Translations under genes and position numbers: made by a program
Notes under the pieces: generated by a model
Told to the model about the DNA's origin: nothing
What the model saw: only the letters and a program-made list of their open reading frames with translations
Database searches by the model: none
Assembly: GCA_000727475.1 (NCBI GenBank)
Contig: KL647303.1
Coordinates: 2,544,773 to 2,608,772 of the forward strand
DNA length: 64,000 bases
Source of the DNA: Sarcocystis neurona
Taxonomy: Eukaryota; Apicomplexa; Conoidasida; Eucoccidiorida; Sarcocystidae
Direction: 5' to 3'
Shown here: piece after piece, positions 10,561-60,000 of the stretch
Layout of the letters: every line of letters starts with the position of its first letter
Numbering within the stretch: the stretch's first letter is position 1

Positions 10561-11220
10561 CGCTTCTCTCCCCCGCCTGCCCCGTTTTTGGCAGTCGTTC
10601 CCGCTCGTTTCCCCCCACTTCTTCGTTTCGCTCCGTTTCCCAGTCTCCTTCCTTTCTTCCTCTCTGTCTTCCGGCTCCTCTTGTCTCTCTGCTCCTCCTC
10701 CGTCCTTCTTCTCTGCATATTCGCCCCGCCGTCCCGCCCTTTCCCTTTTCCATTTGTAAGCGCCTCTCTCTTATGTGTGCCTCCGCGTCCCTTCTTCCAC
10801 CGGCACTTCTTCTCCGTCCGCTTCTCCCTTTCTTGCATTCCTCCTCGTCCTCTCCTCTCCCCGTTTCTGCTTTTGCCTGCGTGTGGGGCTGACTGCTTCT
10901 CTCTCTCCCTCTTCTCCGTCAACTCTTTTACTTTCTCTATTTTTTCCTCCTGCTCTTGCTTGCTTCTCATCGCCGTAACACCGCAGCAACGGGTCTTCGT
11001 CCCAACTTCACGCATTCTGCCCTCTCGAGGCAGCAGCTCTCCCAAATGGCGCTGCAACATTGTCGCTGGTGCTGCTGCTGCGCTGCAGCTGCCTGAGCAC
11101 TCTCGTCTGCAGCCGCTTTTTCAACAACTGGGAGACTCTTGCTGCTGCGTCTACGACTGCCGCTTCCGCTCTGTCGTTGCTGCTGCTGCTCCTCCCGCCG
11201 TGGTGTTTGCTGTCTCTGCT
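10561..11220 (+). promoter_or_regulatory. pyrimidine-rich spacer between divergent genes
   Basis: The plus strand from about 10,560 to 10,970 is strongly C/T-rich (TCTCCCTC, CTTCTTCC and similar units), so the minus strand is polypurine. Charged Lys/Arg/Glu frames on minus and Leu/Ser/Pro frames on plus are products of this bias. The position between two head-to-head gene candidates suggests a shared 5' region. That role is inference. Confidence 0.4.
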
Positions 11221-11224
11221 GTGC

Positions 11225-28362: not shown

Positions 28363-28697
28363 ATGAACGGACGGATGCTCGCCCACTCATACGTGTGCGC
28401 CTTGGCGTCTCTGTGCTGCGCTTGGTTGCTGCCTCGCCTCTTATCACTGCTGCATTCACGCCGAGACGTCCGCAGTGTTGGCTTATCGAATGACGAGTTT
28501 GCCGTTTCTTTTGTGCTGCATGACTGCGCGCAGGCGACGCACCAGCTCCTCTCGCTGCGTCACTGCACTTCTCTGTCTTTTTTCTGCCAGCACCGTCTCG
28601 TGCGTGAGGAACAACAGGTGCTCCTCCACTTTCTAAACAAAAAAAAAGCAAGGCAAGCACGCAGCATGCGGACAATTGCACCAGAAGCTGCCTTCGT
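28363..28697 (+). CDS. candidate first exon, unassigned
   Basis: ATG at 28363 reads a hydrophobic leader (SYVCALASLCCAWLLPRLLS) and then varied polar sequence (RSVGLSNDEFAVSFVL, later QHRLVREEQQVLLHFLNKKK) up to a good donor, GCCTTC/GTAAGC, at 28697/28698. The minus strand is also open over most of this (28711-28205, GTG start, Arg/Ala-rich), so the strand is not certain. TA repeats follow at once. No family is recognised. Confidence 0.25.
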
Positions 28698-29717: not shown

Positions 29718-32700
29718 TCAAGGACCATGGCAGCAGCAGAGAGCGGTGAAGGCAGAAGACGCAGCATCAGGAGCAGCAGCGGAAGCACGTGTCACCGCCG
29801 CTGCGACGGCTGCACAACGCTGGCAGAAGCAGTCGTGGGGCACTAGCCGAAACGTACCCGAAGCACGTGGAACAGCAGAAGCGACCGTAGAGAGCCTTAC
29901 CTTGAAGTGAACCTCGTCGGCTGTGGTCGCTGCTGCTGAATGACGGTTGCTGCTGAGCAGCTGGTGCGCGCGGCGGCAGTGATGCAACGCCTTTCGGAAA
30001 TTTTCTTGCCCGTAGTAGCACTGAGAAATATCTATATGAAGCTGGAGGCACAGCAGAGGCACACACAGAGAAGGATGAAATGACTTTCCCACAAACCAGA
30101 AAGTTACGTCCTGCGGACGCAACAACAAGCTGCGCAGGAGTCAACGGTGAAGTCAACATGGTCCCGCATCCTTTCAATATACAGACATATGCAGGCGCCC
30201 AAGAAGAATCCCTTAATGCAAGCTGCTCGGATTTTACCTCTTTTCTACACAATCATGCCCGCACAGTCTTCAGATACATATGTACATACGTACATATGCT
30301 TGCCTACAAGTTCCTACACACGCACACTCCACATATATGTACGTGTATATATATACGTATATGTATACACACGTATGGAGGAACGCGTAACTATATTGAT
30401 AGCCGGATCTTTATCTAGTGGTGAGTCGCGTGTCAAGTGTCTGTGCGTAGAGAGTCGTTACTGCTGTGCATCGAGGTATATGTATACACGTACATATATA
30501 TGTGATGCACAGGAAGCCCTGCGTATGTGCGTGCAGAGAGATGAGAAATAGAAGACGGCGACAGATGTAACGGTTTTTTTCAGCTGCTACTATTTTCCAT
30601 GTAGAAAGTATTGGTCGTTCATTCATTTCCCCCCGCGTTCGGCTTTCCTTTTCTACTCGACGACGTTTCCCACACACATACCTCTGCTAGATGAATCGGG
30701 TTCTGCCCTTGGACTGTTTCAAGCAGGGAAGTCGCTTTTGATAGAAAGAAATCCACAACATCTGCGCTGTTTCTTCTCCTGTTCACTTTTTGCAACTGCT
30801 GCTGCTGCAGCTCGAAGGCGCTGCCGCTGCCGCTACCGGAACTTTGCTGTTGCAGCTCCTGCGCGGTCCTGGTGTTTCTGCTGTGACACTTCTCCTGTTG
30901 CTGTGAAGAGGCCCAGCTGCAACCGCCGCCGTCAGCTCTCGGTTGCTGCTCATGCAGCACACTCTTCGATTTTTTCTTCATTGTGCCGTTGCCGCCGCGT
31001 GTCTCTTCTGTACTGCTGCTGCAATTGCTCAGTATCTCCTCGTCTCGCCCGCCACTGCTGCTGTAACTTCCGCCTGCGCCCTGTGTGCTGCTGCTGCTGC
31101 CACTGCTGTTCCCACTGCGGCTAGTATTGCTGCTGCGTCTCTTTCCGTAGAGCTGCTGACCCTGCTGCGTCCGCTTTGCCGCGAGCAGCAGCAACACGGC
31201 CATTTCTTGCGCAGCAGTGGCAGTGCCACCCCACAGTCGCAGCAGCAGAAGCGCCCGCAGCACGTGCTGCATGCTCCGGCGCATGTAGACCTCTCCAGGT
31301 AACTCAGCCAATGCCCTGCTCAACGCCGCATGCAGCTCAATCGTAGCCGGGTGATCTATTCCTTCACACCGCTCCGTTAGAATTAACGCCTTTTGAAAAT
31401 AATTGCACGCGTTCAGGTACTCGTCCAGCGCCAGCATCACGTGACCCATCGCTGCGTAGCACAGCGCTGCTTCCCTGTACAGATCCCCACAGCGCGCGTG
31501 ACGGTAGTAGCAGCAAGAGTGAGGTGGACAACGCACCGACAGAAACAGAGAATCCTGTTGTCGAAGGGAAAAGAGATATTGATGCAGGGAAGGACACGCC
31601 GTAAAGAAAAGCTCGAGAGGGCGAGATAATCGAACAGCCGCAGAAGTGATTCAAAGCAGGAGAAATTTCAATCGAGACGGAGTGGCACACGAACCAACAT
31701 ATAAACCGTTGCTACATTGTTCACCGTTCGCGCGCAAACACACACACGTACACACGTACACACGTACACACGTACACACACATACACACACAAGACGCAG
31801 CGCACAGCCAGCGCACGGACACCCCCCAATATGCTATGGCAGCCACCCCGGCAGACATATACATACATATATATGTATATATTTTTCTCTCTTGGAGACA
31901 GAATATACAGGTACACGTGCAGCTGGATGGTACTCACAATGCAAGGAAGAAGAGCTTACCTGCACACAGCCCCTGTCAGCTGATGAATAATATATAAAGT
32001 CTGTTGGTATAGTTCTAGAGCGACGTCTAGCCAGCCGAGGGCGCACGCCTCCGTCGCAACTGCCAGGAGCCCGCGTACTAATAACGAGACGATCTGCTTC
32101 GTTTTTAAAACCGGGAAGCAGCGGCAGAAACTGTCCATCTGCAGCGGCTGCCAGCTGCAACTTGCCGTCTCGGACTGTCTCTGGTCCTGTTGCTGTTGCT
32201 GCTCTGCGGAGCTTCTCTGACCCTGTTGCAGCCTTTGCTGCTCGCTCTTCTCCTGACCCTCCTGCTGCTCTTGCTTGCTGCTTCTTTTCTGATCCTGTTG
32301 CTGTTTTCCACTGGCTCGCTGCTGCTGCTGTGGCGTCAAATCACGTTTTTCCGCCTGCATCTCTGTCGCTGCTGCTGCGGCGTCTGCTGCTCTACGTTGC
32401 GTGCCGCTGCTGTTGCCGCGTGCCTCGTCAGCGCGACGTGGATGCTTCTCCCGGAGGAGGAGCCGCAGCCCACGCGCACTCTGCTGCGTGTCAGTTTTTG
32501 GCGTTCCCGCCTTTTTCGCATCTGTCGGTGTTGCTGCCTGTGCTGCTGCGCCCGTCGCTGTCTTCTCCAGTGCCGCTGCACTCTCTCCTTCTGCGACTTC
32601 TTCTGACGCTGTCGCTATCTCGGCGGTTGCCGCTGCAGTGTCCTTCCGGGCCGGACTCCCAAGTCCTCTTGGAGGAACGACACACGCTTCTGCCACCTGC

Positions 32701-35700
32701 AGACGTCTCTCCGTCGTGTTGCCGCTGCTGCTGCTGGGACTGCTATCATTGCTGCCATTGCTGCTGGCGATGGCGCCATCGTTGCTGCTGGAAGTGAATG
32801 TCTTCCTGCTGTTCGATGTACTCCTGTGCGCTGCCTGTCTTCCACCCTCTCTGCTGCAGCTTCTCCTTCCTTCTTCGCTGCTGCTGACGCAGACGGGGGG
32901 GCAAAAAGTTGTCGTCTGCTGCGTCGCGTCGCCCCTTACGGAGAGGGCGAGAGCATGCACCTTTTCTTCAGGAGTAGGAAGTACAGGCGAAGAGGCCGGC
33001 GCTTCTTGGTCGGTGGCTTCTGTGGAGGCACCGGAGAGTTTCATATTCAGAGTCCCAGGAAGTCGCGGCGACACGGCGGCAGCACTGCCTTTCTTCTCTC
33101 TTTGACTGGCCACCTTGTTCTGGCCTGCAAGGAGGTCAGTTTTCGCGCTCTCAGCAGACGCAGCAGCAGCGGCATGCGTGCGAGCCCCAGCAGCATTCTC
33201 TGGTAGAGGACGAGGAGCAGCAGCAGCTGCAAGGCCACCAGCTGCAGCAGGAGCGGCAAGACCAGCCGCAACCGCGGGCGCATGCGTGTCGTGCCATGGA
33301 TCTAGAATACGGAGAGACGGTGAAGTGCTGAGGAATGCGGCGAACTGATGTGAAGCATTCAGCTGGATCCCAACCGCGCAGCACACACCTCGAAGCAACC
33401 TGTAGCGGCTGCTGGGCTTTGCGAGCCACGTCCATGCTGCGCGTATATCGCCGTTGCCCGAAGGGAAAACAGCGTGGTAATTAAAGTGGGTGCGCATGCG
33501 CAGCTCCATGCGTTTCCACAAGTCGCGCGCCGTTATATCCCACCACAAAAAAGACGCAGCAAAAGTCGTCCCTTCCTCTGCACGGTTTGTCCCCCCTGCT
33601 TGTTCCTGTTCGGTTCCCCACATGGGTGAAACGCCGCTCCCGTACCCTCCCACGTGATGTCTCTGCTGTACCTGCCGCAGCTGCTGCTGTTCTCCCTGCT
33701 GCTGAGGCTGTGTCTGCTCCTGCTGCTGGTGACGCTGCCGCTGCTGCTCCTGTTGTCGCTGCGGCATGCGATGCGCGTCCCGCAACTTGTAGCATGCGCA
33801 TGACGCGGAGGCGAAGCGAGCGACGGAGAACGGCACGGGGAAGAGCTTTGAAGGGTAGTCTACTGTTTCTGGGCAGAGGAGGCAAGACAACAGGTGGACA
33901 GCAGCAGCAGCAACTTGTTCTTGGCAGATATGGGACAAAATGGTATTGAAACAATGAGTTGCGCAGCGGATAGCTAGTTCCAGCAGCAGCACTCTCAACA
34001 CTACGAGTTGGTGCTCCACTCTTGTAGTACCGCTGAGATTTTTTCCCTCGCTGCTGCTGCTGTTGCTGCTCGTGTTTTTAGTCGTAACGATGCTCCCGCC
34101 GTTGTCGTCTGTGCGGTGATGGTGGCTGAAGCAGACCCTGCTACTGCGGCTGCTGCTGCGGCTGGGGGTGTCGCCGCTGCCACTGCTGCTGTCAGCTGCG
34201 ATGCTGTACTCGTTGGAGGATGCGGCTTCCACCGCGGCTCGTTCGCCGGCAGGTAGTCGTGCAGCAGGAGCAGGAGCAGAGGAAGCGCGCGAAGCTGCAG
34301 AGACAACTTTGTACGCAGCAGCTGCTGCATTAGAGTCGAACGAAAAGGCTGAAGAAGTCTGAGAGGCAGCAGGAACTGCTGATTCCTTGTCCGGACCCGC
34401 AGCTGTTTTAAGACAAGACACGAACGTCGACAAAATTCGGCCTTGTAAGTTGGTGGCCACAGCGCCAATGTAGCGCAGATTCACTCCACAGTAGTGGAAA
34501 AGCTGCTTCACGGTGTTGCTTTCCAAGATCAAATTAGTCGCTACCTGCTGGACCAGCAGCTCGCACAGCAGCGGGATCGCCACGCTGTGTAGATACACCG
34601 CAGCTTCTCGCACACTGGCAAACGCCGCAGTGGGCTCCCGGCGGCCCCCCTTCGTTGCTGCAGCAGAACACAACAAGTCATAGCCGCTGCACCGCTTGTC
34701 TTCTGCTCCGGACCAAGAGACGACGGCGAGGTCGTCGCTACTGCTGCAGCAGCTCCTGCAACGCTGCTGAGGATTCTGCCTGTCTGCGGCCCGCTCGCCC
34801 GACACAGAAGGAGACGGTACGGCAACCGCAGCAGCAGACGCAAGCGACGCGTCCCCTGGAGTAGCAGCAGCTGCAGCAGCAGGAGCAGAAACTTTAGATC
34901 CAGCCCCTTGGAAAGGAGCAGTAGGAGGTCCTGCAGCGACGGCTGCCGTGCACAAAAATGCAGGAGTGGCTGCATCGGCTACCTGTCCGCAAAGCGTCCA
35001 GCAAGGATCGACCTCCCAGAAGTTGCTTTCTTCGGCGCCCGCAGCGCACTTCAGTGGCAAAAACTCTCCACGCTGCAACACCTCATCCTGTGGCAGTCCA
35101 GCTGGCCGTTGCAGTTTTTGCTGTTGTGGTTGCTGTTGCCCTCCCAGGCGGGGCGGCTGTGTTTCGCATGCAGCAAGCGCGGCCGCTACTGCAGTTGCGC
35201 CGTCTGTCGCGCCTTCTGCAATACCTGCTCCTTGAAAATCGGTGTTGTTACCTGCATACTCAGTAGCAGCAATCGGCGCTGCATGAGGACAGCAGCAGCC
35301 ACTCAGCGAGGGCAGGGCAAGCGCTCGCAGCAGCAGCTCTGCAGCCATCTGCTGTGCGCGGGTGGGAATGTCCAGTCCTTCCAGCAGCAAACTCACATCT
35401 ATATCCATCGGGAGGCTTTCCAGCAATTCAAGGTCTTCTCTGGGGAGAGAGAACGCCAGAAGCTCCTCTTCGAAATCTTGTTGCTTCTCCCTTTCTTTTG
35501 CTGCTTCTTCTCCTATCGTGTCCGGCGGCACACCGTTGCTGCTGCAGCTGTCAGGTTCTTGTTGCTCCCTGACGCAGTCCTGCTGCTTCTGCGGTTGCCG
35601 CTGCCCTTCCCCCTCCTGCTGCGGCTTCTGCTTTCTTTCCTCTTGCCGCTGCTCTATGTTATGCTGCTGCTGCTGGTGCACCTGTGTGCCCTGCTGCTCC

Positions 35701-37483
35701 ACCTGCACCTGCCTTTGCTCCCGCCCCCACTGCCGTCGCTTACTCTGCTGCTGCTGCTGTTGTTTCTGCCGCCGTCGGTGCCTCTGCTGCTGCTCTGCAG
35801 TGCCGTCTCCCGCTTGGACCCGCTTCACAGACTTCTCTTTTGCCGGTTGTTGCACTCGCCCTTCTCCTTTCTCCGCTACTCCCTCGTGCAGCTCGATCAC
35901 CTGCGGCTCTTTACCCAGCAGCAGTTCCTTCTGTTCATAGAAACTCGCGCGCTGCTCTGCCTTTGATGTCAGCAGGCAGCGCAGCAGCACTCGCTCCACC
36001 AGCGGCAGTAACCGCTCCCTCATTGGCAATTCTTTTTTCTCATCGGCTGCGGGGGCACGAGGTCGAGCAGCAGCGCCGTCGACAGAAGCAAAAGCTGCAG
36101 CAGACGAAAAAGCAGAAGACGGTGTAACCAGAGCTGCAGAAAATCCAGAAGCGGCGGCTGCTATTGCATCCCCTCTGGCTTCTAACAGGCCGAGGCCTCC
36201 GTTCTGCTTGCACCAGCAGCGCATGTAAGTGAGTGCTCCAGATAGCATCAGCGGCAGACGGCGGTTCATTTCCTTCTCAAGACGATATTGCAGTTCTTTG
36301 TCGAACGAATATACGAGAGTTTCCCTTGCTTCTGAAGCAGCAGCAGGAACACCCAATGCGTCCCAGACAGTTTCGTTACCAGTGTCACCAACATCGGCAG
36401 CAGGTTTTGCTTCAAAGGCAGCAGCTGCAGCAGCCACCACGGGAGTAGAGGCGTTTTTACGAAGCTCTGCTTCTTGCTCAGCAGCTGTCGACGTAGGTGC
36501 TGCTGCCGCCGCCGACCTGGATGCTGCTGCTTCCGCCGACTCGGCGGGCGGCGTTGTCGCATTCGATGTTGCTGCGGCTGCCGCGCGTCCTTGTGCTGCT
36601 CCATTTGGTTTTTCTGCTGCTTCTGCTGCCACGGCTGCCGCGTGTTCTACCGCTACAGCGCTGCCACTGCGGTACAGAAGCGCAGTGTCCCCACCAGTCT
36701 CTTCCTCGCCTGCTGCTCTCTCGTCCTTCCTGTTGCCGCTGCTGCTGCTGGACGGTGCCGTGGGTCTGCAGCGCGCAGCAGCAACAGCATCTCTTCGTTT
36801 GCGAAAGGCAAGGTAAGCAGCTAACAACTCCGGCCGAAGAAATTTCGTCTCCTGCACTTCCTCAGCATCAGCAGCACCGCCGTCCGCCGCGTGCAACTCC
36901 CTTCCACTTGCCCTTACGGCCGTTCCTTCTGCAGCTGCGCCTTCCTTCTTCGCTGCTTCTGCTAGTGCTGTCGCTGTCTCTGCCCCTCCTCCATTTTGCT
37001 CTCCTTCTGCCGGTAAAGCTGTTCTCCCCAGTGGTATCGCCTCCGGCGTTCCCGCACACGCCAGCGGAGAAGCTGCTGCCGCTGCTGCTGTCTTTACTCG
37101 GGGAGTTGCCGGAGCATCATCACCGGTATCGCTATCCTCGTGTTGCCGCAGTCTGCTGCTGCAGTCGATGGGAAGGAGCCCTCCCGTACGCAGCAGATGA
37201 ATCCGCCGCTGCTCAGGGTCTGCCGCCCATGGCACGGACGATACGAGCGGCAGCGGTGTCTGCAGAGCAGGAAAGAGCAACACGAAATTGTAGCAGCATC
37301 AGCAACAGCAACAACTACACCGGCGGTGCATGCACCATAGCAGGAAAGTTGACCAACAGCAGAAAGACCCGTCGCAGTTTGGTAGTGTCAATACTCCTAG
37401 TTTCCACAGTAAACGAAGTGACTGCAGGAAATGTCGTTGTACGCCTCACAGCTGGAGTACGCGCATGAGAACGAGGACGTACA

Positions 37484-37521
<38 letters not shown>

Positions 37522-40500
37522 TGAGACGTATGTACCTGTACACGCGGGTGCTACAGATCGTCTGATGTCCACGAACAGCAGCACAGCAGCGATTTTGGAA
37601 GAAAGCGTTATCCGCAGCGTCCAGCCGGGACAGGTGGAATGCAACGCGACGTGTCAGACGAAGCTGCTGAGATTACGGTGGCTCTCTTGATGCCACTGCT
37701 GCTCCTCTAGCTGCCGAAGGTGCGCTGCTGCTGATGTTGTGGTTGCTGCTGTCGCTCTTGCTGGTAGTGCTGCTGTTGCTGGTGCTGCTACTGACGCTGT
37801 TGTTGCCGCTAGGGTGGCTGGTGCTGTTGCGTCTGCGGCTGCTACTGCGGCTACTGCTCTTTTTTCTCTGCTGCAGCTCTTTCTCCTGCTGAAAGTGCTT
37901 CTGCTGCTGCTCTGCCGGGGCCGCTACCGTGGCTGCTGTGCTTGCAGCAGGAAAGCCTTCATTGGTAGTTCCTCTGGTGAGACGCACCTGCCAGCCGCTC
38001 GGGTGAGGCCGCTGCAAGCCAAAAAGAGATCCCAGACGCGTCTCGAGCAGTTCCTCTGCAGCAGCAGCAGCAACAGTCTTGGCCTCTGTGGCTATCCCGC
38101 GTGTTGCTCCTGCAGCGTAGTCGTCTGCCGCAACTGCTGGTTCCCCTGTGTCTTCTGTAAGCGCTGCTCGTGCGGCGGTTCCGCTCGTCAGCTCTTCTGC
38201 AGGTCTTCCGTCCCCTGACGCGTGGCCGCGACCCAAAGTGCCTGCCGGGTCATTTACTGCTGCCCCTGTCGCTGCAGCACGCAGACAAGCGCTCTCTCCT
38301 AATGACTTCTGACGCAGCAACGAAGGAAGTGGCGCTTTGCAAGCAACGCGGATGCCTTCGTAGTCTATCAGGATGCCGTACGACGCGGCCAGTGTCCACG
38401 CGGCCATTCCCTCACCTCCTCCTTTCCCGTCTCTTGACTCTTGCTGCACACGCTGCTGCCGCCCTAGTGCGTGCAGCTGCTTATCCTGCTGCTCCTGTTC
38501 ACGTTGTTGCTTGTTCGTTGATTGGGACGTTCGTTGGTGTTCCTGATTCTGCGCTTCCTCTTGTTTATTAGTGCTTCTTCTGCCTTTTTGTGGACTTCCG
38601 TCCAGTGCTGCCTCCCCCAGATTCTCTGTTTCTCCCCGGGCTGGAAGAGAGGCCGCCCCTGTTGATCCCATTGCACTTGTGTCTCTTGCTGCCTCTGGCT
38701 CTGCTGCTGCTGCTGCTCCTCCGTTTTTCTCTTGTCGTGCTGCCTCTGCTTTTGCTGGTCCCCCCGTTGCTGCTACGGATGCAGTTGCCGTTGCATCTGT
38801 TGTTGCCGCTGCATCTGCTGCTGCCAGTGGATCGGCTGCTGTCATCGCATCTGCTGCTGTGGATGCTGCGTTCGGGTCAGCGACAGGAACTCCACCGTGA
38901 AAAACCTGCAGGCGCTCTAGTAGTTCCAGCCCGCGCATCTCTGCCCGCAGCTCCTGCCTGCTGAACAGCTGATGCGTCCGTCTCGCTGCAACGCGTACAG
39001 CCTGGTTGTGTGCTTCCCGCTGCAGCTGATGTTGTGTGGGGTGCTGCTGCTGCTGATGTTGTGTTTCACCAACAGACGGCCACTCGTCTGCTTCAGCCAC
39101 AAGAAATTGAATTCCTCTACATGTAAGGACGTGCGGGTTCTCCGTTCCTCTCCATGCAAAGCGATCAACGCCAAGAGCAGCACTGCTGCCCGTGGTGCTG
39201 TCTCGGCTGCTCCTCCTGCTGCTCTCCTTGGCACTGCAACTTCTCTCGTTCGTGCTGTCTCTGCTGAAGCTGCTGCTGCCCTCACTTCTGCTGCATGCGG
39301 CCTGGGCTAGCCGCTCCCGTAGGCATTCTACCGCACAAAGAGCGGTCTGCTGAAAGTCGTAATACAGCTGAGAAGAAGAGAACAACGCAATAGCAACAGC
39401 GCAGTGTGCGGCGCAGCAGCATAGCAAGGTTAGATGTGGAGCCGAAGCGGTACAACAGCTAGCTCTGTGTACTGAGAGCAAGCCAGCGGTACTCGCACGC
39501 CACGAGAGGGACGGCGGCAAGAGGCCAGCGCAAGGCACCAGCGTAGCGTTATAACAAAAGCAGCAGCTCCAGGGAGCAGCAGAATAGCAGTCCCAAATAA
39601 TAGTGCATCACAGCAGTAGCGGCACTACGGCAGCAGCAGCGGCACTACCGCAGAAGCAGCGACACTACCGCAGAAGCAGTGGCACTACCGCAGAAGCAGC
39701 GGCACTACTGCAGAAGCAGCGGTACTGCCGCAGAAGCAGCGGCAGCATTCCGGCGTTTTGTAGCAGCGCCTGAGAGCAGCCCAGAAGCGGCAGGGACCAG
39801 CTGCAGCGGCGCAGCCGTCGGCTGGCCGTACCACTGCATCAGTGTATGTCAAAGAAGTCATCCTAAATTTAGCTCGCATGCAGATTTAAATGGTCCTTCT
39901 TTGCAAGCAATCCCGTAACCATATGCACGCACTGTACGCGCCTGTGAGCAGTGAGACTCCACGCAAACGCAGCTTCGCCCGAGAAAGGGCAGTGCAGAGG
40001 CCATGCGTTAGACTACGGGAAACACTTGACCTCCCTACTTAGGCCGTACTTCTTGGCGGTACACGGATCCATCTAATCTATTACATAGGCAGAGGGTCAC
40101 AGACGGACAGACAGCTACGCAGTCAGGTGGTCATACAGGTGGAACAGAGGCAGACGGTAAACCGTCAAACAGCTGCATGTCGGCCACCCCTAACAGAACA
40201 TTCGTGTGCCTCTGCGCACATACATACCGAGACATCTGAGTGGGTGGCCACGCGTACAGGCTGAAGCCCAAGAGAATCCCTCGATAAGCAGTCGCTTGCG
40301 GCACCTGCTGGCTACACAAATACTCTTCTCCCCTCTTGTCTGTTAGACACGCGCGTGGAAATATGCACACAGATATATATGCATACACGGCACTGTACAG
40401 CCCCACAGACATATGTACATCAATATGTGACACGCGTAGGACTACACACAGTTTTGCACTTCCAGAGGTATGGAGAGGCCCCGTTCCATCGGCCGGCTCT

Positions 40501-43500
40501 TCAGCTTCCGCGATGTGTGGGTACGGTGAAGAGGACAGAGGCAAAGAGAAGAGCGCGCGTACGTGTGTGTGTGTGTGTACATGCGTGTGCACACACAGTC
40601 AGTTTGTGGATATAGACGCTGACGCACGTGGCTGAAGACGACATTCGTACATCTCCCCATTCTACGAAGAACACATATACATGCTGCATATAGGCATGTG
40701 GAGCGCACAGACGTGTACCAAGGTACGTCGGAGGGAGCCGGTAAGCAACACCTCGCAGTTCGCACACCTTGAACGCCGCTTTTTCTCTCTGAAGGACGTC
40801 TTGCAGTGACTCTGCACGCATTTGTCGCACGTGGGCTGCGTCGGAGTACCAGCAGCGGTCATTCTCCTCCTCAACAGCAGGAGCTTGGTCAACGTCAGCA
40901 GCAGCTGCTTCGTCCCGCAGAAAGTGAAGCTGCCCCCTTTGCTTCTTCTCTGAAGTTTCCCTCTCCGACTGGTCGTCAGCTTCCGGTCCCGACACTTCTA
41001 CCTGCAAGTGCGCTGTAACTGCTGCGTTTTCAAATCCCACAGCAGCACCTGCTGCGGCCGCCGGTTCGTGGTGCCCGCCACTGTGACTGTCCTTCTGGAC
41101 GCTGCAGCGCGTGTCCGTCCCCTTGCTGCTATAGGTTCCTCTCTCAGGGCTACTGCAGCCGGCTTTCCTGTCGCTCTGATCGCAGTTCGTTTGCTTCTTG
41201 CTGCTGAGGAAGCATTCTGATTTGTCAAGCGCGGGGCCGCAGCAGCACGAAGGAGACGCAGGCACGAGAAAATGGGAGCGCGCGCGCAGCAGCGGCATCA
41301 AACGATAAGGCAGATCAGCGTCGAGTTCAGGAGGTGCCAGCGCCTGCATTCGTGTAATAAACTGCGGGCTATAGGCAGCAAGTAAGTCGCCTAGAGAGGA
41401 GAAAATGTAGGCTGCCGCTGCTGCGTCTGATACAGAGAGACTCATCTTCGTCTTGTCACCAGACAGACAGACGCACTTAGCGGAGGCCGAAAGCCAGGAC
41501 TTCGAAGAACTCGAAAGGGGACATGCAGCACCAGCGCGCGCATCAGCAGCAGAAGCAGCGCTCGCGAAGGAAGTAGAAGCGAAACGTGCAGCAGAAGCGA
41601 GAGGCGCAGCAGACGCAGGAGGAGCACTGGAGGCCGGAAGTGCAGCAGAAGCCGAAAGCGCTGCGGCGGCAGCAGAAGCGGATAGTGCGGTAGAAGCAGC
41701 GGCACGTGGTAAATGGGTGCCAGCAGCAGCGGAAGCTAAAGCAAAAGAACGGTCGCGGAGACACCGGGGAGACGCGGACGAGACTGTCGTCGTTGAAGAA
41801 GCACCAGGGGCACGCTGTTCTTCTGGTGAGGATGCATCTGCAAAAACAGCACGAGGAGGAGAACGCAGATACTCAAACATACGTACCGGCAGGAGTACTA
41901 ACGTGCTGGGGGCTGCAGCCGCAAAACACGCACTGCTAGCAAAGCAGCAGCAGCAGCCGTCAGAAAGGGTCGTCAACACACGCAAGAAATATACGCTATG
42001 TACGTGTATACATATCTATGTATGTACCGGCTATACACACATGTACCTAACAGCTACGTATATATGTACATATATATATATATATATATGCATGTGCCTG
42101 CGGAGCGACGTCGCAGCAGCAGGAAGAGCTCCGCTGAGAACAGTGATGCTGCAGGATGTCCTCTGGCATCATTTGTCTGAAGCCTCTGCGAGGCAATGGA
42201 TGGGAAGAGCAGGCAGCAACTGCTGTCGCAGGGGATGTTCAGAGTCCAGCAGCAACTAGCGCAGAAGCAGCAAGAGGCAGCTGCAATGCAGTGCACAAGC
42301 AGCAGCGAAGGCGCTGACTTATAGCAGCTGCAGTCGCCCCGTCTCGTCTCTTACGAGACGCCAGGATTGACGCACGTTGCTAGTTGTCACCGCGCAAGCG
42401 CCCTCATGGACCCGCTCCGCTCAAGAAGCGCATATGCGTCAAGGTCACACACGGGTAGATGGACCCAGGGTTATTTTCCGTCTTTGTTGCACAGAGGAAG
42501 ACGTGCTCCATTCAAGCGGCATCCTGTGAGCTGCCGCAGCAGCAGGGGTTGCTGCTCCAATGGCGTCAGGTTCAGAGCTGTGTCAGCGGCAGGTCGAGCA
42601 CTGACAGTAGCAAAACTCTCAGCGAACAGGGGCAGCAGCAACGTACAAGGAACGCAACAACAAGCGCCCCGGGCCGCGTCAATCCTTTGAAGCGCAACGT
42701 CGCGGAGGTCAAAATTCATGCTGGTACCTCAGGAACGTATAGAGTGTCGTGGGTACCATTCCACACACATTTGTAATGCGCGTGAATTTATACACATAAA
42801 AGTGCAGGCAAAAAGATACACGTATGTGTATGCCTAGAAACATTTGCCGACTGCGCGCCGTTCCCTCAGGGCCGCAACCGAAGCCGCTCCTCCTCCTGGC
42901 CCTGCTGCTCTTGGCATTGCACCTGGCGCTGCAGCTGTGTCCGCTGCTTCTACTCGCCGCCCTTGCTGCCATGGACCTGTGCGTCTTTATTCTCATCTAG
43001 GTAAAAAGTTACTGCTGCTACTGGCGTGGTCCACAGCGCATCTCGTGTGGCTCTGCGCCGGAAAGTCGAAAAACGAAGCTCTTGCCTCTGAGGCGGTAGC
43101 AGCTGCAGACGGGTGCTGTGACGTTGCGTAGCTTCATCATTACGAAGCCGAACCCCCGCTGCCTCTTCCCCAGTGCTGCTGTGGCTCTTCCACCACCAGC
43201 TCAAACACAAATGCCCGGAAGCTTCTTCTTAAGAAGACTGCGGCGCTACCTGCGCGCGGTCACGCGAAGGACTGCTACGCTCCACAGCCGAGGTATGCAG
43301 CTGCTGACCGCCATTGCGAGTAGCAGCAGCAGTGGCTATCTATCTACTCCCCTGTAAAGACGGATGTTTCGCACAGCTATCCGCTGAAGCATCGGCTACG
43401 TACATTAGTAGGTGTGCGCATGCGTATGCGCCAAAATACCAATCTACCTGTATGCGTGCATATATATATATATATATATATATGTATACACATATAAACG

Positions 43501-46500
43501 AACATGCCCCCATATCTACGTACGTGTATACACGTTTGTGTACTATCCTTATAAATTTAGACTACGTATTGTGTGCTACCACGTACATACTCCTCTCGTG
43601 TGGTACTCTGCGGGTTAGAGATGCAGAGGATCGCCGCTACGTGGTTCCTTACCGTACAGCCAAGGCATATGCTGGGTAATTGCGAACACGTGGAAGCCCT
43701 CCGCTCTGCAGCAAATGTGCAACAGCTGATCTTCCAGCGTCAGCAGCCGCAGCCGCGCGAGCTCTCCCGTGCGGGAGGAGGAGGACGGGGAGGAGAAGAA
43801 GTGCCACTCCAACCGCCGAACGCACTGCCGTAGCGAAAGAAAAGCAGCACAAGCATGCAGAGCAGCAAACAACAAATGGCACGCACAGCAGCAAAGCACC
43901 GCCGCGTGTACCAAGGCGTACAACTTAGAATATCGCAAGCATGCTCAAGCGAAGCCGGAAAGGCAGGCAAAAGCAGACAGAAGATTTAAAGCAAAGACGC
44001 ACGCACGCAGAGGCTGACAGCTGCACATCTGTCGACAATTTATTCGGAGAGAGAGAGAGAGAAAGAGAAAGAAAGAAAAAACGACGGCGTAGAGGCATGC
44101 ACGCAGAGAAAGTGGATTCTCCAGAGACGCACGCACGCCTGCAACCGACGCACACGCAGCCAGAGCTCGCACACGTGTGCCTTTGTGACCGCCGTGACAC
44201 ACGAACAACTGCGCGTGGCTCGCCGCAAAGCCGTCAAGAGCGCGCGTGCAAACTAACGCAGCATTAAAAAGCAAAGAAAGGCGCAGCAGGTGTACAGACA
44301 CCGCAGTGCGCGCTCAAAAGAACGACACCCAACAGCACGCGGCTGCCGCGGCAGCGCGACAAGCACTGTCTGCGACAACGCAGCAAGGGCAGCGACCAAG
44401 AGCCGCAGCAGCAGCCGCACGCAGCTGTCGAAGCAGCAGCAGAGGAGGAGCCGAAGCCACACGACAAGCGAGGAGGGGCGAAGCAGGGGGCATGGAACAG
44501 GAAACGAAACAGCGACAGCGGCACAACAGCAGTGGGACGTGTTCGTCCTGTGAGGCAGAAGAGAGGATGAGAATCGAGGCGGCAGTCTGTGAAACGGCAA
44601 CAAGTCTACAGACGCATCAGAGAGAGAGAGAGGGCAAGACGCGGGGCCGAGAGTATCAGCAGTAGCACATTCCCCTGCAAGTGACACCCAGGAAAGGCGG
44701 GAGTTGCAGCTCTTCAAGTGCAAGCAGCAGGCGATCTTTCCCCCAGCAGCAGCAACACAATGTGTACGTACTTGCGACGCAGGAGCAGCAGTGGGTCGCA
44801 GCACCATCAAGGCTTTTCGGCGGCGGCTCGTGATACAGCTCTAGTAATAGTAGACAGTTGCTAGGGAAAAAAGCTGCAGAACGGCAGCAGCGTTCGGGCA
44901 GACAGCAGCAGAGCATCAGCAGCAGCAGCGAAACGGCAGCAGGAGTACTCCCTCCTACATGCCGAAAGACTAGTGGCATCTTACCGGTGACCCAGGCGGG
45001 GGCGCAGGTCCACTCGGAGAAGTTAGCAGGACGGTGTCCAGTCGACTGCAGCAGACGCACTTCTTGTAGACAGTCCGCCTCCTTGCTGGTGATGCTGCCA
45101 CTGGTATTTTTGCTGCAGGGATCACCGCTTGCGAAGTCGCTTTTCGGAGGTCGCCTGCTAGCGAGCCGCTTCCTCTTTCGCTGCTGCGTAGCTGTTGTGT
45201 CTCCCCTGAGACGGTGTTCTCGGTCTTGCCGCTGGGGTGGTCTTTCACGCCAGTGTTGCCAGGATTGGAGGAGCTGCAGTGGAGTCTGCTCTTGCTGCTC
45301 CGGCTGCTGCGGTTGCTTCTGCAATCTTCGCTGTCCACAGGGTGGTCGTGTGTGCTGCTGCCGCTGCTGTAGCTTTGGCCGTTGCTGACTTGCTTGCCGC
45401 GAGCGCGGTCGCTCTGGTTGTCCAAAGTGCCTTTACCTGCTGTTGCAGCAGCTGCCACCTCAGCCTCTCCAGAGTCCGACTTCCGATGTCCTTGCCACTG
45501 CTTCACATTCTGCTGCTCTGGCTTTCCCTGTTGCTGATGCAGTATTTTCTTCAGCTGCGTCCGGAGTTGCCGTTTTTGCTGTTGCACCTGCTGTCCGTCT
45601 TGCTGCAGTTGCTTCTGCTGCTGCTTCTGCTGTTGCTTCCTGTTCTTCGACTGTTGCGCCTGCTGCATCTTTGTCGAATCGCCTCCTGCTGCGATATTAC
45701 CAATCGCTGCCGTTGCGTCTACCTTTTCTCGCGCAACAGCCCCGCGGCCGCTGCTGCAGCTATCCTGACCCCCACAGCTGCAGCAAATGGTGCTGCAGCT
45801 CGACTGCTGCCCGCTGCCTGCCAGGTGTGTCGCTGGTTGGGTAGCGCAGCAGCAGGCACTAACTGTTTCGTCATCCAGAGCGAGCAGCATCTGCTCCTGC
45901 TGCTGTTGCAGCATATGGAGCTCTTTCGGCAACAACTTTTTCTGCTGCGGCTGTTGCTCTTCGTGTTGCGCCTCTTTGTTGTGCTGCCGCAGCTGCTGCA
46001 GCACCAACGGTTTCAAAAATAAGCCATAGGGACCAGCAGGATCTGCGGGGTCTGGCAGTTCACGCATAAGCAGCAACGGCTCTGCTGCTGCACATTTCCA
46101 CTTTGCTGCAACTGCTTCTTGTTCTGGCGCGGCCCTAGCGCTTCCCGCTCCTGCTGCTGTTTCTTCTGTCGCAGCAGTTACCAGAGCTCCTGCGTCTGCT
46201 TCTACGACCGCGTCTTCTTCTTCAGTAGCAGTCACTACGCCACTGGTTGCTGGTGTTGCATTCAACGCGACGCTGTTGCTGCATCCCAGAGCAATAGCTT
46301 TGAAGCGCTGTAGGTGCACAAGCAGCGCAGCGGCATCGTAGCGTAGGGGCATCAGCAGCAAATCGTCCTGCTGCTGCAAGCCTATGAGAGAGAAAGGCAC
46401 TGTCTCTTGCAACAGAGTGTTTTTCCATTTGACACAGTAGTTCGTCAACAAGCAGGATGGCAGCAGCTCCAGTAGCACCCCGCGCAAATCTGCTACTGTC

Positions 46501-47300
46501 TCGTGCAGGGCCACGTCCGCCTCCAAGAAGACTGCCGCGTCCTTGTGCTGCTCGGCGCCAGCCTCGCTGCAACGCGCTTGTTGCTCCTCTTGTATTTGCT
46601 GCTGCTCTTCTCTTCTCTGCCGCTCGCTCACGAGGGGCGGCGGCTGCTGCTCTGGTGTCTCCTGCAGTTTGTGCCTCCTCTTTTCAGTCTGCTGTCTTTG
46701 CTTCTCTGCGTTCGCCTGTTGCTGTTGTTCCCCCTCCGCATGCTGTCGCAGTCCTCGCTGCGGCTGCCGTTCGTTCTCGGTCTGCTCCTGCCATGTTTGC
46801 TCAGTGCGTTGCTGCTGCTTGTCTGCCTTCGCATGCTTCTGCAATCGCTTCGCTCCTCGTCTGCGTTGCTCCCCGTGGTGCTGCTTCGGCCGCTGCTGCT
46901 GAGGCTCGTCCTCCAGTCCTAAGCGATGCTGCGGGTGCTGCCTCTGCTGTTGTTGGTGTTGTCGCTCCCCCCTGTGGCCTCCCTCCGAAATGCTTGGCTC
47001 CGTGGGACCGAGACAAGTCGGGTCAGGGACCGTTACAAGGAAAGATGCGAGCGACCGCGGCGTAGCAGCCACACATACGTGTGTGGCTGCTACCGCTGAC
47101 ACGGAAGCGTCTGCCGCAGGCGCTGCGGTTGCGCGATCCCGTCCACATGCTCCCGGAGGGCTGTGTGTATTCACACCAGCAGCTGCAGCTGGCGAAGAAG
47201 CAGTGTCAGACAGAGGATCAGCAGCAGCACAAAGAGATATCAGTGCGGGGCGCGGCAGCACCACCTTAACACGGATGTACTGGTCTGCCAGCAGATCCAT
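29718..47300 (-). CDS. CLU: CLU (clustered mitochondria) family protein, eight exons, ~3,620 aa
   Basis: Exons (descending) are 47300-44985, 43824-43653, 41426-40768, 39367-37988, 37259-31960, 31474-30682, 30041-29901 and 29819-29718 (TGA); every phase agrees. CLU proteins are cytosolic, keep mitochondria distributed and bind mRNAs of mitochondrial proteins. Conserved parts appear in order. The CLU N-terminal domain runs from residue ~7 (YIRVKVVLP) to ~340 (LRGVLLELLPSCLLTNYCVK). Then come GELARLRLLTLED (exon 2), SLGDLLAAYSPQF (exon 3), FK-LYYDFQQTA across the exon 3/4 junction, and the CLU core YGILIDYEGIRV (~1376). Next are RRIHLLRTGGLLPID (start of exon 5), GVNLRYIGAVATNLQGR (~2430), the p135-like LLRGVCCAVGIQL (~2790), and TPR-like helices over exons 5-7 (ALILTERCEGIDHPATIELH). 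Family members usually have 1,200-1,450 residues; the excess is Gln/Ala/Ser insertions. The exon 2 acceptor and the last exon are the least certain parts. Confidence 0.88.
31475..31959 (-). other. CLU intron 5 with 10-bp repeats
   Basis: Donor TGCAG/GTAAGC, acceptor GATCTGTACAG, phase 2. A run of CACGTACA units spaced about 10 bp (31738-31780) and a TA patch lie inside it. Confidence 0.75.
39605..39755. repeat. 20-bp tandem array in CLU intron 3
   Basis: Units of the form GGCACTACCGCAGAAGCAGC repeat every 20 bp from 39621 to about 39740 (starts at 39621, 39641, 39661, 39681, 39701, 39721), roughly six to seven copies with single-base variants. Twenty is not a multiple of three, in line with a noncoding (intronic) location between exons 3 and 4. 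Confidence 0.95.
41427..43652 (-). other. CLU intron 2
   Basis: Donor TACG/GTAAGG; acceptor TCTCTGTATCAG, phase 1. The reading frame of exon 3 stays open upstream to 41985 as an Ala-rich stretch, so part of it could be coding if another acceptor is used. It contains a (TA)n run at 42072-42089 and unassigned frames near 42370-42700 and 42844-43131. Confidence 0.55.
43825..44984 (-). other. CLU intron 1
   Basis: Donor GTAAGA immediately after SGPAPPPGSP; acceptor GCTACGGCAG. It contains a GA run on the plus strand (44046-44080) and CAG-rich blocks (44400-44540). Two nearer acceptors (before 43806 and 43761) are also in phase. The one chosen keeps the conserved GEL motif and has the best pyrimidine tract. 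Confidence 0.6.
45540..45680 (-). repeat. CAG-type run coding poly-Gln/Lys in CLU exon 1
   Basis: CTG/TTG triplets on the plus strand give a Gln/Lys-rich stretch (for example SKNRKQQQKQQQKQLQQDGQ) in the sense frame. It is one of many such insertions in exon 1; another Gln/Glu/Arg-rich one (46560-46980) lies inside the CLU N-terminal domain. Confidence 0.8.
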
Positions 47301-56900: not shown

Positions 56901-57058
56901 CGAACAGCCTGCACTACTTGAATCTTTGTCGTGTCTATAAAACTGTAAACACAGTACGAATTTTTCTTTTGACAAGTATGCATGCGCGAATCGTATGTGA
57001 CTGGTATCTGTGAACACGCGTTTGTGTACGCCTGCCTCGGGAAGAAGTTTTTTTCAAA
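50936..57058. other. large repeat-poor intergenic stretch
   Basis: About 6 kb with few triplet runs and only short microsatellite patches (52300-52315, 52985-53005). Open frames are all under about 140 codons, scattered over both strands, rich in Cys/Thr/His/Arg, and show no acceptable start-splice structure. It separates the divergent CLU gene and the gene at 57059, so promoters for both probably lie at its edges. No element could be recognised. Confidence 0.55.
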
Positions 57059-60000
57059 ATGTTGCAGGCGTCGCCCACTCCCCGCGACGCGCTTATTCGA
57101 TTTGAATCAAAGTCTTTTTTGAGCGCGCAGCAACAGGCCTTGTGGGATACTTTTCTTCACCGACACGTCCCTGTTGCTGGTCCTTCGGCAGAAGGCGGCA
57201 AAGCAGTCCCAAGGCGACACCCTAAGACAACCCCTTCGGCCGCTGCGCACACAAGAGCAGCAGCATATTCTACAACAGGAAGGGCAACAGGCAGCACAAG
57301 AATACAAACTCGAAATTCCACGACAGATGGATCTGCAGCTGCTGCTCCGCCGCAGTCCCGTGCAGCAGCAAGCCGCCGGCAGCAGCAGAGTAAAGAGTTT
57401 AGTCGTCACTGTCAGCAGAGAGACAGTGGACACGACACCGCAGCGGACCGCCGGTATGTGCAGCGAACACGTAGAGAAGCAACGGCGGCAGCCACGCACG
57501 TGAGGATAACACACTCAGCGGCAGTGCCGGGCAGAGGTATACAGGCATCTGCAAGAGCAACACCCACATCACGAATTTCGCTCGCAGCAGGCCTAGATCC
57601 AAAAGGCAGTGCCGTGGGTGCTGTAGCAGCAGCCGNTCCCCCCCCGAGTCACATCAACTCCAGATACGTCCCACCTGCTCCTGCCGTTGCTCCTTTGCGG
57701 ACTCCGCGGCCTGTCCCAGCAGCACCACCGCCAGCAGCAGCAGCAGCGCCAGCACCAGCACCAGCCACAATATCGGTGGAGGTGAGAAAAAATGCTGCCC
57801 CGACACCGCTGGACACAGCAACAGCAGCTGCCGCTGCAGCTGCCTTCGCAGTTGCAACAACTACAGAGGACATTTCTTCTCCTCGCCTGTTTGCAACGCA
57901 CTTGTCTACGTGGTGGCGGCAGCAACACGAGCTGCAAGGCTGCACACCCCAGCGGCAGCGGCTTCAACGCATTCAGTCACCGCGAGAGCAAAGCATCCAC
58001 CACAGCAGCAGGTTTGAGGGCTACAACAGATACGACCGTAGCAGCGGACACAACAGCAGCAACAAATACAACGAGAGCAAAGACCTCGCACACCAGCTGG
58101 CGACGAGTACTGCTGTTAATACGCATCGAAAACGAATCTCCACCGACGCACTCTTCCCTTCAGACGCCCACACAGCAGCACAGTGGACTTCAGGAGCAGC
58201 CGCAGAACCCGCGCGAGGTGCAGCTGGCAGAGCAGCAGCAGCAACGAAGGCGAGAACTGCAGCACCAACAGGAGCTACGGTAGCAGCACCAAGGCTGCAG
58301 CAGCCAGAGACTCGTCGAAGCATGACTCCAGTAGGCGCAGAAAGTGTGTCCCCGTCTTACGCCACATCGGCAGGAACAACCACAACTTCCACTGCGCTCC
58401 TGCAGCGGCAGCAACGCCAGCGTCACGGACAGTCTGAGACACACCGGGAGCAGCTCCAGGGTTCACAGCGTCAACAGCTGCAGTCAGCACAGGCTTACTG
58501 GAAACCTCATGAGCAATCACGGCTGCCACAGCCACAGGTTTTGTCGCAGCAGCAGCAACACGGGCAGCGGCAGCAGCACGAGGGGGTGCAGCAAGAGCAG
58601 CACCTGCCTTCTCGACGGCAGCAGCGCCAGTGGGAGCAGAATCAACATGCAGCTCTTCCCCACCTGCATGAACCGTATCAGCAGTGGCATCAGCAGCATC
58701 ATAGATACCAGTGGGAGGATCAACAGAGGCCGCAGCTGACTGCGCCTCTGAAAGAGACGGGTACGCTAATATGTGGTGTGCATCGCATGTTTGCCGATAC
58801 CTCGTGGACATGCAGCGAATACATGTAACTGCGTACTTATCGGCATTTGTACTGACATGAATCTTGAGCGAGACGCGTATGTTGTCTTTTACGACTCCAC
58901 CACACAGCGACATCATCCGTTCTATGACGTAAACGCAGCCCATCTTGCCAGGGCACAGAAGACAGTCTAGTGACTCTGCAGACCAATTAGTGAAAGAGCT
59001 TCTTATAATTATACGTTCTGCTGGTGCAAGGTCGCTTTCACCGGCACGACCAACTAGACCCGCTGAAGTAGCAGGTGCCACTTTTCCGTCATTGCACAAA
59101 CGACTGACGTCTGGAATAGAACTGGTCCGCGTGTTCAGAAACACATTTACAAACACACAGAGGGATATGTCTGTGTCCGTCCATATATATATATATATAT
59201 ATATTCATGTGAACGTACGTACATACATACTTACAAGCTGCAAATTACTTGGACGTCATTGACCCGTCACTTTACATATAAAGACACGTACATTTTTGTG
59301 TGTGTCGAAAATATTTACATGTGTCCACAAGTATAAACGTAGGTGCGTATAGATGAATACAGAGGCATACGTGCACATAAATATATATATATATACGTTT
59401 ATACAATTGTACACACAGATGCTGCAGGCAGTCGGACGCGCGCAGAGGCATACGTACATATACATATATATACATGTGTATATACGTGTATATACAGTTG
59501 AATAAACAGTTGCTGCAGGCACTCGTCAAGGTGCAAGACACACGATTTCCTCACGTACGCTGCGGGTGTTGGATGACGGCAACTGGATGCCCATGCTTTC
59601 GCATCTCTTACCACAAGTGTATACACGCATCTGTTCACGAGAGCAGTCCGCTCTCCCGTCGCATCATATGGAGGTCCGCCTGGGTACGCAAGCATGCGTG
59701 CGTCCACGCATCGGTACCTACACGCGGCAACAACGTGAACATAAGACAGAGCCCAGGTAAACAGGAGATAGTTAATAAAACTGGCGCGCGTAAGGGGTAT
59801 ATCCTGGAACGTTAGAATTTTACGTTATGGGAGCAAAAGCAGCAACAGAGGCCGTTCTTGTTCCCAGTAGATGTAACAGAGTGCACTCCTCTCAGTGTTC
59901 CTCTGCTTTGGCTTTGCAGCAGCGCCACCAGCCTCAAAAACCGTAGCTGGGGGTGTCCCTGGACAAGCCACAGCACCACCAACTCTAGCAGCAGCAGCAG

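What the first reader, a model, noticed from the sequence alone, without database searches (positions are those of the whole stretch)
29718..47300. Giant CLU protein assembled from eight phase-matched exons
Every junction between motif-bearing pieces on the minus strand is GT-AG with matching phase, and the motifs follow the CLU family order. The predicted product (~3,620 aa) is two to three times normal length. Almost all the excess is Gln/Ala/Ser/Glu insertion between, and even inside, conserved blocks. How such a protein folds and still serves mitochondrial distribution is worth study.
Basis: partly seen in the sequence, partly recalled or inferred. Interest (0 to 1): 0.75.

Follow-up and report, generated by a model that had tools for sequence, protein, structure and literature searches.

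The report
Overgrown coccidian CLU mitochondria gene
This is the CLU (clustered mitochondria) gene of a Sarcocystis-like parasite, apparently intact, but swollen to about 3,770 amino acids by filler sequence between its conserved parts, as another gene nearby is too.

Summary
Orthologues found here (Besnoitia 2,092 aa, Neospora 2,126, Hammondia 2,062, Toxoplasma 2,068, Eimeria media 1,723, Cystoisospora partial) support an eight-exon model, window 47300-28483: 3,773 aa (about 402 kDa), no internal stop, seven GT-AG introns. The start is right. The end (29718) is wrong: exon 7 splices at 29901 to a last exon at 28632-28483. CLU_N and eIF3_p135 pass Pfam cut-offs on plain open frames, CLU on the joined exons, TPR_12 on a trimmed joined piece. 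Of 150 residues invariant in six orthologues, 116 are kept. A genome search found no second copy. The excess (1,658 residues without partner in four relatives) looks coding: 0 stops in 1,574 in-frame codons, against 29 and 53 in the other frames. It is not nearly pure Q/A/S/E (43%) and prefers sites that vary in relatives. A GDT1-family gene in the same window is swollen likewise, so gigantism is not peculiar to CLU. Most likely an ordinary CLU translation/mitochondria factor with long flexible loops; transcript proof is lacking.

The parts
44985..47300 (-). Exon 1 (aa 1-772): start codon at 47300; CLU_N domain; low-complexity inserts; donor CCG|GTAAGA
   Evidence: CLU_N 31.1 bits, cut-off 25, on the open frame; start MDLLADQYIRV aligns to MELFGDQYIRI of orthologues; splice site
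43653..43824 (-). Exon 2 (aa 773-829): GSKIP-like block GELARLRLLTLED...; acceptor could also be at 43806
   Evidence: tblastn of Besnoitia 457-486, 53% identical, E 0.04; alignment; phases
40768..41837 (-). Exon 3 (aa 830-1186): end of GSKIP-like region, start of CLU domain; donor AAG|GTGTGC
   Evidence: tblastn 535-581 E 1.7e-11 and 609-642 E 0.012; donor seen
37988..39367 (-). Exon 4 (aa 1187-1646): middle of CLU domain (LIDYEGIRV), inserts; donor CAG|GTGCGT
   Evidence: joined exon 3-4-5 piece, inserts kept, passes PF13236: 26 bits, cut-off 24, E 9.6e-6. No Besnoitia tblastn match in this exon; Eimeria match at 39379-39311 is weak, E 0.58
31960..37259 (-). Exon 5 (aa 1647-3412): end of CLU, eIF3_p135 domain with internal inserts, start of TPR region
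   Evidence: eIF3_p135 60.7 bits, E 2.4e-16; several tblastn matches, best E 2e-21
30682..31474 (-). Exon 6 (aa 3413-3677): TPR region
   Evidence: tblastn 1840-1950, 55% identical, E 4e-27; TPR_12 26.7 bits, below cut-off 30.1, on this open frame alone
29901..30041 (-). Exon 7 (aa 3678-3724): TPR; donor AAG|GTAAGG
   Evidence: TPR_2 19.8 bits, E 8e-4, below cut-off; no tblastn match of its own; aligns to Besnoitia ...VAEIHSDCSQIYQ...
28483..28632 (-).
   Evidence: Besnoitia 2030-2083 matches 28632-28474, 46% identical, E 5e-5; acceptor TTTAG|AAA and TAA stop

Best explanation
An apparently intact CLU/CLUH-family gene, single in a search of its genome, of a Sarcocystis-like coccidian. Shown: conserved blocks in CLU order, in a model with seven introns, with about 1,660 extra residues of in-frame, largely low-complexity sequence at mostly variable positions. 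Inferred: the conserved helical blocks fold as in other CLU proteins; the extra sequence is looped out as flexible linkers; [quoted passage not shown] The inserts most likely arose by CAG-type coding-repeat growth that is not specific to this gene and need not serve CLU function.
For: Pfam cut-offs passed by CLU_N and eIF3_p135 on plain open frames, by CLU on joined exons with inserts kept, by TPR_12 on a joined TPR piece with an insert left out. Six coccidian orthologues (Cystoisospora partial) align along the model: 32% identity to Toxoplasma over 1,972 positions, 116 of 150 invariant columns kept. Tree place between Eimeria and (Cystoisospora + Toxoplasma group), 97/97 support. All 7 genome matches at E 0.001 or better, of 16 candidates scored, fall in this gene. 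0 stops in 1,574 insert codons against 29 and 53 in the other frames. Inserts prefer variable sites: 0.62 against 0.73 flank conservation, reached by none of 20,000 random draws. GDT1-family gene in the same window swollen too. Ribosome, mRNA and granule role of Clu1/Clu/CLUH: passages of PMC12262889.
Against: No transcript or protein data. CLU passes its cut-off by only 2 bits, and the exon 4/5 join adds nothing to its score (15.6 bits with, 16.4 without, on short pieces). The GSKIP region gives no Pfam hit here (piece 2) and is below cut-off in Toxoplasma and Eimeria. Exon 2's acceptor and the exon 2/3 join lie in variable sequence. The structure prediction of the eIF3_p135 part was too poor to show loops (pLDDT 43). 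No functional work on a coccidian CLU turned up in my searches, so function is family inference. 31% of the non-insert residues are also low-complexity. Elsewhere in the genome low-complexity is uneven, so genome-wide growth is not shown.
Confidence: 0.92

Rival explanations
1. Some inserts are unrecognised introns or are removed by alternative splicing, so the real protein is nearer the 2,100 aa of its relatives.
For: No RNA data. The coding exons hold 7 GTRAG sites (0.62 per kb against 0.93 in the introns), so a few in-frame introns are possible, above all in the 5.3-kb exon 5. Three of the model's own donors are not GTRAG (GTGTGC, GTGCGT, GTATGT), so other sites could serve too.
Against: 0 stops in 1,574 insert codons against 29 and 53 in the other frames. 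Insert runs reach at most 85 residues (255 nt), while the seven introns are 485-1,815 nt, although the aligner splits long variable stretches. Insert GC is 0.592, like the aligned coding sequence (0.59); introns 0.531. Seven GTRAG sites cannot flank 49 insert runs.
Confidence: 0.08
2. A chance assembly of unrelated open frames by a reader free to choose GT, AG and phase.
For: The region has many long open frames on both strands, and phase-matched GT-AG pairs are easy to find (judgement, not computed).
Against: Orthologues were found with this sequence and align through the joins, for example GAVC|REAALCYA against GAVCREAALCYA in Besnoitia; the tblastn matches kept place Besnoitia residues 1 to 2083 in order.
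Confidence: 0.01
3. A decaying CLU pseudogene filled by repeat growth.
For: Second longest end branch in the tree, 35-36% identity to the five sarcocystid relatives (27% to Eimeria) at 826 shared columns, large inserts.
Against: Open over 3,773 codons with GT-AG splice sites, 116 of 150 invariant columns kept, and no other copy found.
Confidence: 0.02
4. The inserts have been recruited for function, for example to drive CLU granule formation by phase separation.
For: Clu/Clu1 granules are described as forming by phase separation (PMC12262889, passages); 39% of this protein is low-complexity.
Against: The GDT1-family open frame in the same window is 59% low-complexity; inserts prefer variable sites; orthologues do without most of them.
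Confidence: 0.06

Closest known systems
Toxoplasma gondii ME49 'tetratricopeptide repeat-containing protein' / KIAA0664 homologue (P0006, 2,068 aa) and the Hammondia, Neospora and Besnoitia orthologues
   Same: Same start motif, CLU_N, CLU in two stretches, eIF3_p135, TPR and C-terminal segment, in the same order (Pfam scanned for Toxoplasma and Besnoitia)
   Different: Window protein is about 1.8 times as long, 32% identical to Toxoplasma over 1,972 aligned positions, 39% low-complexity against 8% in Toxoplasma
Eimeria media hypothetical protein Emed_006924 (P0002, 1,723 aa) and Cystoisospora suis partial protein (P0003, 1,769 aa)
   Same: Same family; also rich in low-complexity (19% and 29%)
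   Different: Eimeria: CLU_N below cut-off (19.4 of 25 bits) and 187 residues for eIF3_p135. Cystoisospora: lacks both ends as deposited, rich in S and E rather than A and Q
CLU family: yeast Clu1/TIF31, Drosophila Clueless, human CLUH
   Same: CLU_N, CLU, eIF3_p135 and TPR families of Pfam
   Different: About 1,280-1,310 aa for yeast and human (recalled); function tested there, no test in coccidia found
Eimeria-type CAG coding repeats (homopolymeric amino acid repeats)
   Same: CAG-rich coding repeats described as general in Eimeria (PMC8785600, passages)
   Different: Here mixed A/S/Q/G/E stretches, homopolymers no longer than 6

Membership tests
CLU (clustered mitochondria) family | CLU_N domain (PF15044) near the N-terminus | tested here: met
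   31.1 bits, cut-off 25
CLU (clustered mitochondria) family | CLU domain (PF13236) | tested here: met
   26.0 bits, cut-off 24, E 9.6e-6, two stretches, on the joined exon 3-4-5 piece with inserts kept. Single open frames gave at most 13.2 bits; two earlier joins, linkers left out, 17.1 and 16.6
CLU (clustered mitochondria) family | eIF3_p135 / CLU central domain (PF12807) | tested here: met
   60.7 bits, cut-off 22
CLU (clustered mitochondria) family | C-terminal TPR repeats | tested here: met
   TPR_12 37.0 bits (cut-off 30.1) and TPR_2 33.9 (cut-off 27) on a joined exon 5-6-7 piece from which an insert was left out; below cut-off on single open frames
CLU (clustered mitochondria) family | GSKIP/DUF727 domain (PF05303) between CLU_N and CLU | tested here: inconclusive
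   No Pfam hit in the window piece; below cut-off in Toxoplasma (12.0 of 20.9 bits) and Eimeria (14.3), absent from the Besnoitia list; the block aligns to orthologues
CLU (clustered mitochondria) family | Domain set and order on one protein (domain set of CLU1 as given in passages of PMC8775565) | tested here: met
   Order in the model and in the orthologues, Cystoisospora partial
CLU (clustered mitochondria) family | Association with ribosomes and mRNAs of mitochondrial proteins; effect on mitochondrial distribution | not testable with these tools
   Ribosome and mRNA association of yeast Clu1 and CLUH: passages of PMC12262889. Mitochondrial morphology and distribution: only a paper title in a reference list seen and recalled knowledge

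The most novel reading that the evidence does not exclude
In the Sarcocystis lineage the CLU protein has become a 400-kDa, 39% low-complexity scaffold whose lineage-specific flexible segments, some inside the eIF3_p135 domain, alter its granule formation or ribosome binding, making it a natural insertion-tolerance map of a CLU protein.
Probability: 0.06. Interest if true: 0.45.

Novelty: new member of a known kind. Interest (0 to 1): 0.22.

Why it matters
It gives a corrected full gene model for a CLU orthologue in a Sarcocystis-like genome, ties it to Toxoplasma and Neospora proteins named only as TPR-containing or KIAA0664-related, and maps which parts of CLU proteins tolerate large inserts. 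It also warns that long phase-matched assemblies from raw reading need orthologues to find their ends.

Tried and rejected
An extra exon between exons 3 and 4 (window about 40311-40228) and later exon-3 donors (40666 and others) looked plausible by eye. They were rejected because orthologues read FEKASFK|LFVEFQHSAL straight through this point, which fits the AAG|GTGTGC donor at 40768 and exon 4 at 39367. The corrected join also scores 26.0 bits for CLU against 17.1 and 16.6 for two earlier joins, but those two pieces had linkers left out, so the comparison is not clean.

The first protein search, with a repeat-rich region, found nothing (0 of 7,980 scored candidates). The second gave 3 of 7,983, the third 5 of 7,988, the query itself among them. 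All three exclude proteins above about 3,660 aa, so a Sarcocystis orthologue of this size could not have been seen. P0007 (1,273 aa, E 4e-10, 12% covered) carries many TPR-type Pfam labels and was left out of the alignments. In one search only minus-strand matches between 27 and 48 kb were printed; others were dropped unseen.

The PF13236 search of the own genome rang nowhere, controls included, and says nothing. The PDB search gave 17 sequences up to E 1, best E 0.004, all matched within the TPR part of the query, no CLU structure. The structure prediction (mean pLDDT 43, pTM 0.27, seven sequences) was not used for a fold search. NCBIfam gave nothing for two proteins, Rfam nothing at its cut-offs. 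The pooled low-complexity share printed is spoiled by N bases in two loci and is not used; the rows of the 18 unmasked loci are.
Full report
What was claimed.

What is in the sequence. Minus-strand open frames in order carry CLU_N (31.1 bits, cut-off 25), eIF3_p135 (60.7 bits, cut-off 22) and TPR signals below cut-off. A protein search with conserved blocks found Besnoitia besnoiti BESB_029120 (2,092 aa), Eimeria media Emed_006924 (1,723) and a partial Cystoisospora suis protein (1,769). A search from the Besnoitia protein found Neospora (2,126), Hammondia (2,062) and Toxoplasma ME49 (2,068) orthologues, and one TPR-type row, P0007, left aside.

Corrected gene model. tblastn of the Besnoitia protein, with matches up to E 1 kept for the minus strand of this region, places residues 1 to 2083 in order (15 matches, E 4e-27 to 0.36). 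With the splice sites read, the model has eight exons: 47300-44985, 43824-43653, 41837-40768, 39367-37988, 37259-31960, 31474-30682, 30041-29901 and 28632-28483. It has 11,322 nt, 3,773 residues, one terminal stop, and all introns GT-AG with consistent phase. The start agrees with the orthologues (MDLLADQYIRV against MELFGDQYIRI). Two corrections follow. With this join and nothing removed, the CLU domain passes its cut-off (26.0 bits, cut-off 24). Exon 2's acceptor (43824 or 43806) and the exon 2/3 join lie in variable sequence and are the least sure. The exon 4/5 join rests on the alignment, not on the CLU score, which it does not raise (15.6 bits with, 16.4 without).

Are the inserts coding? 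1,658 of 3,773 residues have no partner in any of the four closest orthologues; 49 runs of at least 8 residues hold 1,574 of them. These have 0 stops in frame, against 29 and 53 in the two other frames. Their GC (0.592) is that of the aligned coding sequence (0.59), not of the introns (0.531). GTRAG sites in the coding exons are few, 7 in 11.3 kb. So most are probably translated if the gene is expressed; a few hidden introns cannot be excluded without RNA.

What the inserts are. A+S+Q+E make up 43% of them (41% of the whole protein, 31% of Toxoplasma); 48% of insert residues and 31% of the other residues are low-complexity by a 12-residue entropy measure. Whole proteins: window 39%, Cystoisospora 29%, Eimeria 19%, Neospora 11%, Hammondia 9%, Toxoplasma 8%, Besnoitia 5%. 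The longest homopolymer is 6. Insert sites have lower flank conservation among the relatives than random sites (0.62 against 0.73; none of 20,000 random draws as low), but 5 of 49 lie in strongly conserved surroundings (flank at least 0.85). Within eIF3_p135, 163 profile positions spread over 392 residues here, against 206 in Toxoplasma, 212 in Besnoitia and 187 in Eimeria. The CLU domain is matched in two stretches in Toxoplasma and Besnoitia too, so that interruption is older than this lineage. The aligner may scatter residues within low-complexity stretches, so run lengths and insert counts are approximate.

Is the gene intact and single? 204 of 343 columns invariant in five sarcocystid orthologues (5 gaps) and 116 of 150 invariant in six coccidian ones (1 gap) are kept; these columns cover only the part that the partial Cystoisospora protein has. 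All 7 genome matches to the Besnoitia protein at E 0.001 or better, of 16 candidates scored, lie in this gene. One of them runs over a stop, at the exon 5 border where it enters the intron. Short exons were below that search's reach, so fragments of another copy could be missed.

Whose genome. 123 Mb in 74 contigs. The protein tree puts the window between Eimeria and (Cystoisospora + Besnoitia/Neospora/Hammondia/Toxoplasma), 97/97 support (root at midpoint, Eimeria branch long, window and Cystoisospora letter make-up unusual). Published Sarcocystis genomes are about 127 Mb (S. neurona) and 113.89 Mb in 75 contigs (S. calchasi) (passages of PMC6381282 and PMC12132954). A Sarcocystis species is the likeliest source; the species was not established.

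Is the gigantism special to CLU? In the same window on the plus strand a GDT1-family gene has its two GDT1 repeats in open frames of 1,731 and 353 aa (46 and 30.9 bits, cut-off 27). About 1,000 codons of open frame precede the first repeat (start codon not determined), and about 650 codons of largely Q/S/A-rich sequence follow it in the same frame; 59% of the 1,731-aa frame is low-complexity. GDT1 proteins are usually about 200-350 aa (recalled). The 15 open frames of at least 300 aa in the window have 18-72% low-complexity, though these include antisense and intron-bearing frames. Elsewhere the picture is uneven: in 18 unmasked 10-kb stretches, of 26 open frames of at least 300 aa (not shown to be genes), 12 reach the CLU protein's 39% and 4 have 5% or less. 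CAG/CTG x4 sites average 7.3 per 10 kb in the window; 7 of the 18 stretches have 7 or more and 7 have none. CAG coding repeats giving amino-acid repeats are described as general in Eimeria (PMC8785600, passages). So the swelling is shared by at least one other gene nearby and by open frames elsewhere, but a genome-wide rule is not shown.

How it most likely works. [quoted passage not shown] The window protein keeps the family's domains, so the same role is inferred, with the extra sequence looped out. A structure prediction of the eIF3_p135 part with seven sequences was too poor (pLDDT 43) to test looping. Four literature searches pairing CLU names with apicomplexa, Toxoplasma or Plasmodium listed no paper on a coccidian CLU. 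The library holds open-licence papers only; one search listed 20 of 74 papers and 15 of 7,249.

Verdict. A real, apparently intact CLU orthologue, oversized as another gene in its window is; ordinary in kind, with a corrected structure.

Noticed in passing
window 10979-17899, + strand: GDT1-family cation/proton antiporter gene, its two GDT1 repeats (AEVGDRTF and AEVGDRSM) far apart, with about 1,000 mostly low-complexity open codons before the first and about 650 after it in the same frame; swollen like the CLU gene.
   Followed up: partly
window 57014-58828, + strand: A 604-aa open frame without any Pfam match at E 0.05, 37% low-complexity.
   Followed up: no
window introns, e.g. 43500-43380, 42100-42060, 31860-31740, 30540-30300: Introns rich in TA/TG and TACGTGTA-type simple repeats, seen while reading splice sites.
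   Followed up: no
L004 and L011 (own genome, C4 and C11): 10-kb stretches whose open frames of at least 300 aa are 78-96% low-complexity, perhaps tandem arrays.
   Followed up: no
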